Shown here: positions 8,251 to 11,999 of the stretch, piece by piece
How positions within the stretch are numbered: the first letter of the stretch is position 1
How the letters are laid out: each line of letters opens with the position of its first letter
Assembly (NCBI GenBank): GCA_944332205.1
Contig: CALVJN010000016.1
Location: forward strand, 1-33,841
Reading direction: 5' to 3'
Length of the DNA stretch: 33,841 nucleotides
From: an uncultured Bacilli bacterium
GTDB taxonomy: Bacteria; Bacillota_I; Bacilli_A; RF39; UBA660
Position numbers and translations under genes: made by a program
Notes under the pieces: generated by a model
What the model was told of the DNA's origin: nothing
The model's database searches: none
What the model saw: the letters and a program-made list of their open reading frames with translations, nothing else

Positions 8251-9162
8251 TTAATAAGTAAAAATATCTAATATTCTTTCTGTATTTTTAAAATTAAGCT
8301 TAGCAATATCCTTAAGTTTTTCTTTTCCAAACTTTTGAATAATTTCTTTTCCAATAATATCAACTTCTTTTCCGGCACCTTTAGGTAGTGGTATATGTAA
8401 TGTATCAGAAATTTTGTCAAATTCTTTTAAAAATATATATCTACTAATTACTGAAGCACAAGCTACTGCTAAATTTTTATCTTCTGCTTTAGTCATGAAT
8501 GTTATGTTTTTTTGTATATTAGGGTTTCCTTTTAAATATTCATAATATCTATTTTCTCTAGCAAATTCATCAACGATTATATAATCATATTTTACTTTTT
8601 CTTCGTTAACCATTTGCCAAAGAACTCTATTATGCATTATTGCTTTAATTTTGTTTATATTATAATCATTTCTGTATTTTTCATTATATTCAATGTTACT
8701 CATAATAAGACTTTTGTATTTGATTCTCGTAATAAGTTTTGGTGCAATATTTAATATTTTACTATCGTCTATTTTTTTTGAATCTTTTATCCCTAAACTT
8801 TCAACAAAAGTTATATCATCTTTTGAAACATAGGTGCTTGTGACTACTATTGGTCCAAAATAGTCCCCAGTTCCTACTTCATCTGATCCAATTGAAGATG
8901 AATAGTAATATTTTTCATAATTCTTTTCGTTTTCTTTATTGGATTTTGATTTTCCATCTATTTCGCGCCACATATTTGCATCAATATCAGCATTAGCACC
9001 TTGGAACATTACTTTTCCTGATTCATACATAGTTATAACAGTGTCTAGGTCTTGTGCTTGAAATACAGTGTAGGGAATTTTTTTTTCTCTTTTTTTATCT
9101 TCATAATATTTAATCATTTTTTTACGAGTTGTTTCACTTACTTTTAATACTACGTTAGCCAT
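8251..9162 (-). CDS. rnhC: Ribonuclease HIII
   Basis: A 303-residue RNase HIII that cleaves the RNA strand of RNA-DNA hybrids in replication and R-loop removal. The N-terminal ~70 residues are the TBP-like substrate-binding domain typical of HIII. The catalytic domain begins GSDEVGTGDYFGP, giving D94 and E95; D198 in IIVDEFA and D228 in TKAEDKNLAVACASVISR complete the four metal ligands by comparison with the Bacillus stearothermophilus enzyme. It is the only credible minus-strand gene in the window. On the minus strand ATG (9162-9160) is preceded by GAGGTGA and an extended -10. It ends at the terminator shared with the SPFH gene. Confidence 0.95.
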   Translation of the reverse strand: MANVVLKVSETTRKKMIKYYEDKKREKKIPYTVFQAQDLDTVITMYESGKVMFQGANADIDANMWREIDGKSKSNKENEKNYEKYYYSSSIGSDEVGTGDYFGPIVVTSTYVSKDDITFVESLGIKDSKKIDDSKILNIAPKLITRIKYKSLIMSNIEYNEKYRNDYNINKIKAIMHNRVLWQMVNEEKVKYDYIIVDEFARENRYYEYLKGNPNIQKNITFMTKAEDKNLAVACASVISRYIFLKEFDKISDTLHIPLPKGAGKEVDIIGKEIIQKFGKEKLKDIAKLNFKNTERILDIFTY

Positions 9163-9165
9163 AAT

Positions 9166-9190
9166 TTCACCTCATAATTTTATTATAACA
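9166..9190 (-). promoter_or_regulatory. Extended -10 promoter of rnhC
   Basis: Reading the minus strand, TGTTATAAT occupies 9190-9182 and the GAGGTGA ribosome site starts at 9173, 8 nt further on. The predicted leader is therefore only about a dozen nucleotides. Confidence 0.6.
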
Positions 9191-9254
9191 TTTTTAATTT
9201 TATTTTGTATAATTTTATTTGTACAATATTTATAATAAAATTTAAATATTATAC

Positions 9255-9283
9255 TTGCATCATAGAAAAAAATGTGTTAATAT
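9255..9283 (+). promoter_or_regulatory. Promoter of the tRNA pair
   Basis: TTGCAT (9255-9260), 17-nt spacer, then TAATAT (9278-9283) with TG extension at 9275-9276. The first tRNA begins 17 nt after the -10 box. Confidence 0.72.
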
Positions 9284-9299
9284 TAACTAGTCAGTTGTT

Positions 9300-9376
9300 G
9301 GACCCTTAGCTCAGTTGGTTAGAGCATCCGGCTCATAACCGGGCGGTCATAGGTTCGAGTCCTATAGGGTCCACCA
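9300..9376 (+). tRNA. tRNA with CAT anticodon (Ile2 or elongator Met)
   Basis: A 77-nt cloverleaf. The acceptor arm GGACCCT pairs with AGGGTCC, followed by A and an encoded CCA (9374-9376). D-arm, T-arm (GGTTCGAGTCC) and anticodon loop CTCATAA are all present. The anticodon stem lacks the three consecutive G:C pairs of the initiator, so it is not tRNA-fMet. The overall body resembles the Bacillus tRNA that TilS modifies with lysidine to read AUA, so I lean to tRNA-Ile2; elongator tRNA-Met cannot be excluded by eye. Confidence 0.93.
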
Positions 9377-9382
9377 TTATGT

Positions 9383-9467
9383 GCGGGTGTGGCGGAATTG
9401 GCAGACGCACTAGACTTAGGATCTAGCGCCGTGAGGTTTGCAGGTTCAACTCCTGTCACCCGCACCA
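9383..9467 (+). tRNA. tRNA-Leu (TAG)
   Basis: An 85-nt class II tRNA with long variable arm. GCGGGTG pairs with CACCCGC, followed by A and an encoded CCA (9465-9467). The anticodon stem CTAGA/TCTAG encloses loop CTTAGGA, giving anticodon TAG for CUN codons. It lies 6 nt after the first tRNA and must be on the same transcript. Confidence 0.96.
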
Positions 9468-9504
9468 TAAGTAATTTAGTCAGTTAATTGGCTTTAAATA
9501 TATG

Positions 9505-9533
9505 AAAGGTTAATTTTAGTTAATCTTTTTTTT
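9505..9533 (+). terminator. Terminator after the tRNA pair
   Basis: AAAGGTTAA (9505-9513) pairs with TTAATCTTT (9520-9528, one G-T pair) and runs into a T-tract to 9533. It is 37 nt after the tRNA-Leu CCA. Confidence 0.65.
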
Positions 9534-9682
9534 ATTTTAAAAAAGTTTGGTGGTTATTTTTTTTATATCGTAAGAAGTTTTATATTGGTTAAATTTTAAG
9601 TATAGTTCGAGAAAATAAATGATAAAGTATCGTAAGGTATTATATTATTTAATATAATATTAAATTATTGTAATTGTAAAGT
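9534..9682. other. Non-coding stretch with repeats upstream of the unknown gene pair
   Basis: No gene of credible length is seen here. TATCGTAAG occurs twice in the same orientation (9566-9574 and 9628-9636). An inverted repeat follows: TATTATATT (9638-9646) with AATATAATA (9651-9659) around loop ATTT. A 12-codon ATG frame at 9619 has no convincing ribosome site and is ignored. The stretch lies between two terminators, so it could hold a short RNA, operators for the downstream pair, or remnant DNA. Confidence 0.45.
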
Positions 9683-9717
9683 AAAAGCAAGGTTTGTCTT
9701 CATTTCTTGCTTTTTTT
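9683..9717 (+). terminator. Orphan intrinsic terminator
   Basis: AAAAGCAAG (9683-9691) pairs perfectly with CTTGCTTTT (9706-9714) and is followed by more T to 9717. There is no gene between it and the preceding terminator, yet it is the stronger of the two. Confidence 0.8.
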
Positions 9718-9726
9718 GTGGCTTTG

Positions 9727-9752
9727 TGTTAGAATAAGCAATCACGGGTGAT
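9727..9752 (+). promoter_or_regulatory. Extended -10 and GGTGAT site of the unknown gene pair
   Basis: TGTTAGAAT at 9727-9735 and GGTGAT at 9747-9752, with ATG at 9761. The promoter begins 10 nt after the T-run of the orphan terminator. The ribosome site should lie at the extreme 5' end of the message. Confidence 0.5.
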
Positions 9753-9760
9753 TGTTATAC

Positions 9761-10468
9761 ATGAAAAAAATAAATGGTAATGAATTAGCCAAAATATTAT
9801 ATACTTTATTGTCAGATAATGAAATAAATAAAATTTCTGTAAGTAAGTTTAGACTTTTGACTATAAATTTAATTAATATTTTAGGGGAAAGCTATGTTGA
9901 AAATATTTTGGAAAAACCAGCTATTAATTTATTTGATGTTTGTACTCAAGATTTTATAACAGATATTTCAGAGAGCTTTGAAATAAGTTTTTCTTTAACT
10001 GATGATTTAAAAGCTGCAATAAAAGAAAAATATGGTGAAATATTCTTAAAATTTGAAGAAGCTGTTTTATTTTATAATTATTGTGAAAAAAGCATTAATG
10101 ATGATAAGATTTTAGTAGACTTTAAGAATGAAACACCGGATGGTGTATATAGAGTTTATTATCAAAATACTGGACGTGTAAGTCTAGGGACACAAATTTT
10201 TACGGATGGCAATGTTATCCCTACTTATTATGATAGTCAATATTCTAATGTTGTATCTGATGAAGAAACGGTTGAAGTTGAAGACGCGACATATGTTATT
10301 GTTTCTACACACTGTGATGGTCATGTGAAGAAAATAGAAATTAAAGCAACTTCATTTGATGTTAGTCATTTAATAGAAGAAATTACAAAAATTAAAAATG
10401 GATTAAACTATGGATATACGCAAATAGGTAATTCTAAGCTAAAAAAATATATGTTGATAAGGCAATAA
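9761..10468 (+). CDS. Unknown protein, first gene of a tRNA-adjacent pair
   Basis: A 235-residue protein I do not recognise. ATG 9761 is used because GGTGAT lies 8 nt upstream; TTG 9752 would overlap that site. Residues ~1-110 look mainly helical (KINGNELAKILYTLLSDNE at the start). Residues ~115-190 look beta-rich and acidic (DGVYRVYYQNTGRVSLGT, then DEETVEVEDATYVIVSTH). A helical tail ends with a basic stretch. No signal peptide or membrane helix is seen. It ends 3 nt before the next gene, so the two are almost certainly translated from one message. Gene order (unknown protein, then a putative ADP-ribosyltransferase-like protein), the tRNA neighbour and the repeats upstream would suit an accessory or toxin-antitoxin-like pair, but nothing in this sequence alone proves that. 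Confidence 0.75.
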   Translation: MKKINGNELAKILYTLLSDNEINKISVSKFRLLTINLINILGESYVENILEKPAINLFDVCTQDFITDISESFEISFSLTDDLKAAIKEKYGEIFLKFEEAVLFYNYCEKSINDDKILVDFKNETPDGVYRVYYQNTGRVSLGTQIFTDGNVIPTYYDSQYSNVVSDEETVEVEDATYVIVSTHCDGHVKKIEIKATSFDVSHLIEEITKIKNGLNYGYTQIGNSKLKKYMLIRQ

Positions 10469-10471
10469 TTT

Positions 10472-11065
10472 ATGGAATCATATTTTTATCATAGATTTAG
10501 AAATTTTAATTTAGATACATTGCTTAGAGTTTTTGATAGCGGCTTTATTTTACCAAGAAAGATGATAGTTAACGGAGTAGATGATGCTAACAATATTTTT
10601 AATGGTAATTCTTATATTTCATTAGTACAAAAAACTTTAATGACAGATGATATGTGTAGATATTTTCGTTCAGCTTATAATGAATTAATACAGGGAAATT
10701 TATGTGTAGTTATTTCTAGTGAAATTGATGGTATAGTTTATCCTAATTATATTGATTTTGGGTTTGATGATTCAAGTGTTTTTAATAATAAAAATGATGA
10801 TAGTTCATATAGGTATTCGTATTACATGGATGAAGTGCAAACGGCAATTCCAATACCAATTTCTAAGTTTATAGCAATAGGCTATCCCATTGCTCATTTT
10901 ACAAGAGAAAAAACTAAGGACGAAATTGTTAATGATATAATTACTATTAAAAAGAAATTAAATGATAAGAAAATTAATATTCCAATAATTGATTCAACAA
11001 ATAGTGAGTTTGCTGATGATGAAAAACAAATAGAATTATCTAAAATTAAATTGTTACATCGATAA
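10472..11065 (+). CDS. Putative ADP-ribosyltransferase-fold protein, second gene of pair
   Basis: A 197-residue soluble protein not assigned to a named family. The order of motifs resembles small ADP-ribosyltransferase-fold proteins: YFYHRF with H7 near the N-terminus, a helix and LLRVFDSGFILPRK (cf. 'L-x-x-I-x-x-x-G-h'), NSYISL with Y48/S50 (cf. the central Tyr or Ser), and YYMDEVQTAIPIPISKFIAIGYP with E121 (cf. the catalytic Glu strand followed by a loop and 'I-P-x-x-x-I'). This would give an H-Y-E-like triad, by inference only. The C-terminal ~55 residues are a helical, basic tail. ATG 10472 has only a weak AAGG site, so coupling to the upstream gene is likely. An RNA 2'-phosphotransferase-type or unrelated fold remains possible. 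Confidence 0.5.
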   Translation: MESYFYHRFRNFNLDTLLRVFDSGFILPRKMIVNGVDDANNIFNGNSYISLVQKTLMTDDMCRYFRSAYNELIQGNLCVVISSEIDGIVYPNYIDFGFDDSSVFNNKNDDSSYRYSYYMDEVQTAIPIPISKFIAIGYPIAHFTREKTKDEIVNDIITIKKKLNDKKINIPIIDSTNSEFADDEKQIELSKIKLLHR

Positions 11066-11163
11066 AATAGTATAGCTTTTTATTCTTTTGTATAAAATAT
11101 TAATAAGTTTATTTAGTAGTAATTACTTTTTGTTTACTAACTAACAATTTTGTTGTATTATAT

Positions 11164-11186
11164 TGCTATAGTAAATTGTAGGTGAT
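11164..11186 (+). promoter_or_regulatory. Promoter and GGTGAT site of the HAD-transketolase pair
   Basis: TGCTATAGT at 11164-11172 is a plausible extended -10; GGTGAT at 11181-11186 precedes a GTG start at 11190. The overlapping ATG at 11188 runs straight into TGA and cannot be used. Confidence 0.5.
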
Positions 11187-11189
11187 AAT

Positions 11190-11999
11190 GTGAAAAATAC
11201 AAAGATAGTTTTTGTTGATTTAGATGGTACATTGAAAGACAGTTATCAAAAAATTAGTGTCAGAAATAAAATAATTATAGAAAAATTATCAGATATAGGT
11301 GTTCAAGTTGTATTTACAACAGGAAGGCCATTGAATTATACAATATCACTTAGCAAACAATTTTCTGCAAGTAATTATGTTATTGCATCAAATGGTGCTG
11401 AAATATATAATTATTTTAATAAAAAAGTTATATATAATAGTATAATTTCTAATGAAATTCTTATCAAACTTAGTGAATTAATAAAAAAATACAATCTCTT
11501 TTTTATAGCTAATTGTCTACTTAAATCTTATACAAATAAAGATTTTGGAGATCCAGGTAAGAAAATTATAAATTCTCTTGATGATATTTTAAATGAAAAA
11601 ATTTCTCAATTAATTGTCGAATCCTTTGATATTGAGTCTATGAAAAAATTTAAAAAAGAAATATCTACTATTTCTGGAGTAAAAATTTCTAATAAGTCTA
11701 GAAATCCTAAGGATAATAACAAAATTTTGTTTTATGATATAACTAACGTTGATGTATCAAAAGGTAATGCAGTTAAATTTTTGTGTGACTATTTAAAAAT
11801 AGATATTAATAAAACTATGGCAATAGGAGATTCTGACAATGATATTGAAATGTTACAAGTTTCTAACATTAAGGTTGCTATGAATAATGCCACAGATAAT
11901 TTAAAGAAAATAGCAAAATTTGTGACTTTATCAAATGATCAAGAAGGTGTCGCTATAGTGTTAGAACGTTTATATGATGAATTAGTTAGACAGGAGTGA
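11190..11999 (+). CDS. Cof-type HAD phosphatase
   Basis: A 269-residue HAD-superfamily hydrolase of the Cof/IIB type that dephosphorylates small sugar phosphates or nucleotides. Motif I is DLDGTL with D10 and D12; motif II TTGRP (~43-47); motif III K191 in VSKGNAV; motif IV GDSDND with D214 and D218. The cap domain (~80-185) is of the usual size for C2B caps. The GTG start is set by GGTGAT. It ends 5 nt before the transketolase ATG and the transketolase ribosome site lies inside its last codons, so the two are coupled. A link to pentose-phosphate intermediates is suggested by context only. Confidence 0.9.
   Translation: MKNTKIVFVDLDGTLKDSYQKISVRNKIIIEKLSDIGVQVVFTTGRPLNYTISLSKQFSASNYVIASNGAEIYNYFNKKVIYNSIISNEILIKLSELIKKYNLFFIANCLLKSYTNKDFGDPGKKIINSLDDILNEKISQLIVESFDIESMKKFKKEISTISGVKISNKSRNPKDNNKILFYDITNVDVSKGNAVKFLCDYLKIDINKTMAIGDSDNDIEMLQVSNIKVAMNNATDNLKKIAKFVTLSNDQEGVAIVLERLYDELVRQE

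What the first reader, a model, noticed from the sequence alone, without database searches (positions are those of the whole stretch)
9534..11065. tRNA-adjacent two-gene unit with a putative ADP-ribosyltransferase-fold product
Directly seen: two genes 3 nt apart, behind two tRNA genes, an orphan terminator, a 9-bp direct repeat and an inverted repeat. The second product has H7, Y48-x-S50 and D120-E121 set in contexts that recall ART-fold proteins (H-Y-E type). Known: small ART toxins (for example DarT) and their partners are often paired and sit in tRNA-linked accessory DNA. Inferred: a toxin-antitoxin, defence or nucleic-acid/protein-modifying pair with an unrecognised first component.
Basis: partly seen in the sequence, partly recalled or inferred. 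Interest (0 to 1): 0.62.

Follow-up and report, generated by a model that had tools for sequence, protein, structure and literature searches.

The report
New ADP-ribosyltransferase-fold gene with fast-evolving neighbour
A gut bacterium of the class Bacilli carries a small enzyme-like protein with the fold and key catalytic residues of ADP-ribosyltransferases, in an operon with a fast-evolving unknown protein; the enzyme family is not in the standard catalogues, but that the two genes form a toxin-antitoxin pair is not shown.

Summary
The two genes are real: gene 1 (9761-10468) and gene 2 (10472-11065), 3 nt apart. The ART reading of gene 2 holds. AlphaFold plus Foldseek/VIA-align returns almost only ART-superfamily structures (Tpt1 Z 9.6, DarT Z 8.5-8.8). 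In 27 homologues, most at about 20-30% identity to the window protein, only H7 and E121 are invariant; S50 is kept in 24 and Y48 in 18. No Pfam, NCBIfam, PADLOC or PHROG model recognises the window protein.

The 'mobile, tRNA-linked toxin-antitoxin' reading is weak. The pair sits at one fixed place (tRNA-Met/tRNA-Leu ... gene1-gene2-HAD-tkt) across its genus, and gene 2 diverges in step with tkt. Outside the genus, ART relatives (about 10% of sampled genomes of the bacterial family, none convincing outside it) stand without a shared partner, often inside housekeeping gene runs. Gene 1 has ten genus members (two without an adjacent gene 2) and one stand-alone distant relative. It evolves very fast (dN/dS 0.55, against 0.06-0.09 for tkt and HAD).

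Best reading: gene 2 is a catalytically intact ART of a lineage-specific family, coupled in this genus to gene 1 as a likely cognate inhibitor or regulator in a conditional, conflict-type module. Fold: near certain. Pair function: inference.

The parts
9300..9376 (+). tRNA-Met (CAT), intact; fixed upstream landmark in the genus
   Evidence: for the same tRNA pair in five relatives
9383..9467 (+). tRNA-Leu (TAG), intact; fixed upstream landmark in the genus
9683..9720 (+). hairpin (AAAAGCAAG/CTTGCTTTT) followed by a T-tract, terminator-like; probably ends tRNA-side transcription, not shown to belong to the pair
   Evidence: arms (I19); not apparent at this place in the nearest relative; not listed by the pattern scan, whose loop limit is 8 nt
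9715..9740 (+). probable promoter -10 region (TTTGTGTTAGAATAAGC block), shortly before the ATG of gene 1
   Evidence: read from the sequence; the block TTTTGTGTTAAAATATGC is kept in the nearest relative; inference, not in the list
9761..10468 (+). gene 1: 235-aa protein, N-terminal helical part plus C-terminal antiparallel beta domain (about 118-196) and a helix; partner candidate, no recognised family
   Evidence: (pLDDT 88.8)
10472..11065 (+). gene 2: 197-aa single-domain ART-fold protein; H7 (10490-10492), Y48-I-S50 (10613-10621), R114 (10811-10813), E121-V-Q123 (10832-10840)

Best explanation
Gene 2 encodes a small cytosolic NAD+-dependent mono-ADP-ribosyltransferase of a new, lineage-restricted family inside the DarT/Tpt1-like part of the ART superfamily. 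H7 on the first core strand and the Y/W-I-S strand hold NAD+; E121, at the start of the strand followed by the 'IPL..I.gI.iP' segment, is the catalytic glutamate. In this genus gene 2 is co-transcribed with gene 1, which most likely acts as its cognate, fast-evolving binding partner (inhibitor, folding partner or sensor). The likely outcome is that the ART is held in check and released on stress or phage attack, to modify a nucleic acid or a translation component. Shown: gene layout, fold (predicted), invariance of H and E, fixed locus, fast evolution of both genes. Inferred: catalysis, co-transcription, coupling of gene 1 to gene 2, target, trigger.
For: Fold: the model (pLDDT 74.3, pTM 0.76) matches yeast Tpt1 (Foldseek E 9.1e-4, prob 1.00; VIA Z 9.6, rmsd 2.5 over 104) and DarT structures (Z 8.5-8.8 over 130-136 residues); nearly all of the 50 rows are ART-fold proteins. 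The viral library gives several proteins of Bacillus phage G, which PMC9503650 reports to encode at least 10 ARTs. Residues: H7 and E121 invariant in 25-27 divergent homologues. Independent sequence hints in register: two homologues touch Pfam DarT below its cut-off (E 0.0089 and 0.025); hhalign puts E121 on the AEVLV glutamate of DarT relatives (P 3.7e-4) and H7 on the YHGT histidine of Tpt1 (P 0.002). Pairing: gene 1 and gene 2 adjacent and co-directional, within about -40 to +30 nt, in all eight genus genomes where both are seen on the contig. Gene 1 persists without gene 2 beside it in two genomes, the direction expected if gene 1 protects. Rate: dN/dS 0.55 (gene 1) and 0.23 (gene 2) against 0.09 (HAD) and 0.06 (tkt) versus the nearest relative.
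Against: Relatives of gene 2 outside the genus have no shared partner, so the ART does not need gene 1 in general. Gene 1 exists alone in G317, a genome with no detectable ART. The ART model is only moderately confident (alternative models 53-69 pLDDT) and rests on five sequences. No catalytic activity, toxicity or complex could be tested. Adjacency without rearrangement may simply reflect vertical descent.
Confidence: 0.45

Rival explanations
1. Gene 2 is a stand-alone ART (regulatory or defensive modifier of the cell's own or invading nucleic acids or proteins); gene 1 is an unrelated neighbour that merely shares the operon.
For: Outside the genus, ART relatives are solo and sit in housekeeping runs, read from the sequences as tyrS-like, typA-like, cinA-like, nadD-like, murF/tgt-like genes, without a common partner. 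One genome has a tandem array of ART domains and no gene 1 beside them. Gene 1 also lives alone in G317.
Against: Within the genus the two genes stay adjacent in every genome where both are seen, although the DNA upstream of gene 1 is reshuffled. Gene 1 is the fastest-evolving gene tested and gene 2 also evolves fast.
Confidence: 0.35
2. Gene 2 is a Tpt1/KptA-like RNA-end enzyme (2'-phosphate transfer to NAD+ or RNA-end ADP-ribosylation, RNA repair).
For: The best structural match is yeast Tpt1; the H7 segment aligns with the Tpt1 YHGT segment.
Against: Only the C-terminal lobe is matched (Aeropyrum residues from 89, yeast from 109); the N-terminal lobe is absent. PF01885 does not hit the window protein or own genome.
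Confidence: 0.1
3. Gene 2 is a degenerate or non-catalytic ART-fold protein (binding domain or decoy).
For: The family diverges quickly, and one member (G183) is split into two ORFs.
Against: H and E are the only invariant residues across the family while most of the rest drifts; gene 2 is still under purifying selection (dN/dS 0.23).
Confidence: 0.06
4. The unit is mobile accessory DNA inserted at the tRNA genes.
For: It lies downstream of a tRNA pair, and the stretch between the tRNAs and gene 1 varies in size and gene content in the genus.
Against: The pair stays on the tkt side in the same order wherever that side is visible, apart from G001, where the downstream side differs. Gene 2 divergence tracks tkt. 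No relative was found in the phage or plasmid collections or in viral contigs. The direct repeats do not flank the pair.
Confidence: 0.04

Closest known systems
DarT (PF14487; DarT1/DarT2 of DarTG toxin-antitoxin systems)
   Same: ART core of similar size; VIA Z 8.5-8.8; model residue 1 pairs with Thermus DarT residue 7, so H7 falls at H13 if ungapped there; E121 aligns with the AEVLV glutamate; paired with a second gene in this genus
   Different: Below the Pfam cut-off in all members scanned and no hit for the window protein; no DarG/macrodomain-type partner; no invariant arginine like R51 in the N-terminal half (R29 13/27)
Tpt1/KptA tRNA 2'-phosphotransferase (PF01885)
   Same: Best structural match for the ART lobe, Z 9.6; YH segment
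   Different: No N-terminal lobe; no PF01885 hit
Pfam DUF5846 (PF19164)
   Same: N-terminal 'YHgI...IL..GyIL' segment touches it weakly in some genus members (E 4.6e-4 at best)
   Different: Never reaches the curated cut-off; only about 36 positions matched in the gene 2 family members
CmdTAC (ART toxin CmdT with CmdA and SecB-like chaperone CmdC, PMC11618068)
   Same: A small ART in an operon with dedicated protein partner(s); there the antitoxin is also needed to fold the toxin
   Different: No CmdA or SecB-like gene recognised here; no direct similarity tested

Membership tests
ADP-ribosyltransferase (ART) superfamily | ART core fold | tested here: met
   nearly all ranked structures are ART-fold; model confidence moderate (pLDDT 74)
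ADP-ribosyltransferase (ART) superfamily | catalytic glutamate on the late core strand | tested here: met
   E121 27/27; aligned with the DarT AEVLV glutamate
ADP-ribosyltransferase (ART) superfamily, H-Y-E class | H on first strand and Y on second strand | tested here: inconclusive
   H7 27/27; Y48 18/27 with W/F in 6 more; no coordinates available to check geometry
ADP-ribosyltransferase (ART) superfamily | NAD+-dependent transfer activity | not testable with these tools
   needs biochemistry
DarT (PF14487) | score above the curated Pfam cut-off | tested here: not met
   window protein no hit; best homologue 16.2 bits against 22.5
DarT (PF14487) | conserved active-site arginine (R51 in Thermus DarT, PMC9967889) | tested here: inconclusive
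   no invariant R in the N-terminal half (R29 13/27), but no residue-level structural alignment was available
DarTG toxin-antitoxin | DarG macrodomain (or NADAR) antitoxin next to it | tested here: not met
   gene 1 has no significant Pfam match and a helical plus antiparallel-beta predicted make-up; the gene downstream of gene 2 is a HAD-type protein
Tpt1/KptA (PF01885) | two-lobe protein with N-terminal lobe | tested here: not met
   only the C-terminal lobe is matched; no PF01885 hit
type II toxin-antitoxin module | two small adjacent co-directional genes | tested here: met
   conserved in eight genus genomes where both are seen
type II toxin-antitoxin module | toxin family regularly accompanied by its antitoxin | tested here: not met
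   no shared partner next to about 20 sampled ART relatives outside the genus
type II toxin-antitoxin module | toxicity neutralised by partner | not testable with these tools
   needs expression in a laboratory strain
tRNA-linked mobile island | variable occupancy of the site, flanking att repeats, integrase | tested here: not met
   fixed place in the genus, divergence parallel to tkt, repeats do not flank the pair; an integrase was not searched for by profile

The most novel reading that the evidence does not exclude
A previously uncatalogued, lineage-confined ART family, spread as mostly solo and sometimes tandem genes through the chromosomes of one gut Bacilli family, forms an endogenous nucleic-acid- or protein-modifying (conflict or regulatory) system. 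In this genus it has recruited a new, fast-evolving two-domain inhibitor with no known fold match, giving a new ART-based toxin-antitoxin or defence type.
Probability: 0.3. Interest if true: 0.7.

Novelty: new variant of a known kind. Interest (0 to 1): 0.45.

Why it matters
ARTs are central to bacterial conflict, phage defence and nucleic-acid modification. This family is missed by the four profile libraries scanned here, keeps its catalytic pair, and is expanded in small-genome uncultured gut bacteria in which few defence genes are named. If active, it adds an ART branch with possibly new targets, and gene 1 may be a new kind of ART inhibitor.

Tried and rejected
Profile searches with Pfam, NCBIfam, PHROGs and PADLOC: nothing above cut-off where the library has one, and no convincing hit otherwise. 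PDB sequence search with profiles A1, A2, A5, A8: nothing significant. Gene 1 fold search: no PDB match at E <= 0.001 and best VIA Z 3.7 over the beta domain only, so its fold is unplaced, not proven new. Viral, phage and plasmid searches: no relatives. Rfam on 9150-11250: only the two tRNAs above threshold. Weak genome hits in an ABC-transporter-like ORF (G103) and an HtpG-like ORF (G438) were discarded as chance matches to the E motif. A suspected resemblance of the gene 1 N-terminal domain to Panacea-type antitoxins was considered from memory; Pfam gave no such hit and it was dropped.

Full report
What is there. Gene 1 (ATG 9761 to 10468, 235 aa) and gene 2 (10472-11065, 197 aa) are real, co-directional ORFs 3 nt apart, downstream of tRNA-Met and tRNA-Leu and upstream of a HAD-type gene and transketolase. 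The in-frame TTG at 9752 is less likely as start, because homologues start at the position of the ATG. A hairpin with T-tract at 9683-9720 is present but is not seen at that place in the nearest relative, whose own sequence shows a different hairpin closer to the tRNA. The TATCGTAAG repeat (9566, 9628) lies wholly between the tRNA and gene 1. A likely -10 box just before gene 1 sits in a block kept in the nearest relative, so the pair probably has its own promoter (inference).

Gene 2 is an ART-fold protein. No library recognised the window protein. Relatives were found in 9 of 12 genus genomes with the single sequence and, with a profile, in 31 of 291 sampled genomes of the same bacterial family (24 of 150 genera), but convincingly in none outside that family in the class and phylum samples (the single class hit outside it, G438, is an HtpG-like ORF). 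A few of the weakest hits counted inside the family (for example G103) also look like chance. An alignment of 25 members at 23% mean column identity leaves exactly two invariant columns, H7 and E121. With 27 members: H7 27, E121 27, S50 24, Q123 21, R114 20, D120 20, Y48 18. AlphaFold2 on five sequences gave pLDDT 74.3 and pTM 0.76. Foldseek's top PDB rows are Tpt1 (E 9.1e-4) and DarT, then cholera toxin A subunit, CteC and Arr among others. VIA-align gives Tpt1 Z 9.6 and DarT Z 8.5-8.8, and nearly all 50 rows are ART-fold. In the viral library the best rows include several Bacillus phage G proteins, a phage independently reported to carry at least ten ARTs (PMC9503650). Sequence-level hints agree in register: sub-threshold Pfam DarT matches at the E segment in one homologue and at the start segment in another, and profile-profile alignment placing E121 on the DarT AEVLV glutamate and H7 on the Tpt1 YHGT histidine. 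Each piece is modest; together they make the ART fold very likely and an intact active site likely. Activity itself is not shown.

Gene 1. It is a fast-evolving protein with ten genus members and one full-length distant relative outside the genus, in G317. The predicted model is confident (pLDDT 88.8): N-terminal helices, then an antiparallel beta domain and a helix. There is no PDB fold match better than VIA Z 3.7 and no family match. It is not a macrodomain by these measures.

Do they belong together? Within the genus, yes by position: both genes are adjacent and co-directional in all eight genomes where both are on the contig (window, G009, G007, G005, G003, G002, G001, G011), although the stretch between the tRNAs and gene 1 ranges from about 0.3 kb to about 6 kb with different genes. 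In G008 the contig begins just upstream of gene 2. G006 and G010 keep gene 1 directly before the HAD gene without gene 2; G006 has an ART relative elsewhere and G010 none detected. Gene 2 divergence tracks tkt (Spearman 0.77), so inheritance looks vertical. Pairwise dN/dS against the nearest relative is 0.55 for gene 1 and 0.23 for gene 2, against 0.09 (HAD) and 0.06 (tkt), with the same order against G007. Fast change in both, most of all in gene 1, fits a conflict or co-evolving partner role but also fits weak constraint.

Outside the genus the ART relatives are not paired with gene 1 or any other common gene: immediate neighbours differ and often look like housekeeping genes (function names there are my reading of the sequences). 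G254 carries a tandem array of several ART domains, some two to an ORF, beside a tgt-like gene. This argues against a classical toxin-antitoxin module as the ancestral state and for a solo ART family that acquired, or simply sits beside, gene 1 in this genus.

How it most likely works. Gene 2 binds NAD+ through H7 and the Y/W-I-S strand and uses E121 to transfer ADP-ribose. The closest structural relatives act on nucleic acids, so a nucleic-acid or translation target is my first guess (inference). In this genus gene 1 probably controls it. CmdTAC shows that an ART's partner may be needed for folding as well as for neutralisation (PMC11618068), so 'antitoxin' need not be simple here.

Membership. 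It is an ART-superfamily member by fold and residues. It is not DarT by Pfam threshold or partner, not Tpt1 by domain layout, and not shown to be a toxin-antitoxin module.

Noticed in passing
L074 and L075 (G254 contigs C93 and C119): Tandem array of ART paralogues, including ORFs with two ART domains, between murF-like and tgt-like genes.
   Followed up: partly
window 9467-9760 and equivalents in L013, L016, L017, L018, L030: The stretch between tRNA-Leu and gene 1 varies from about 0.3 kb to about 6 kb in the genus, with UmuC-like, YolD-like and other genes in some genomes: a variable spot beside a fixed pair.
   Followed up: partly
L122:3660-4457: A stand-alone distant relative of gene 1 in G317, flanked by XRE-type and AbrB-like regulators; no ART was detected in that genome.
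   Followed up: partly
L086:3684-4342 (G183): An ART relative split into two ORFs, a likely decaying gene.
   Followed up: no
G319:C31:70-543 (L052): A weak ART-family match inside a very long open frame (1068 aa), cut by the contig end; may be a fusion.
   Followed up: no
window 9300-9374, minus strand: Sub-threshold Rfam match to Plastid-ycf2 5'UTR RNA antisense to tRNA-Met, apparently tRNA cross-reactivity.
   Followed up: no
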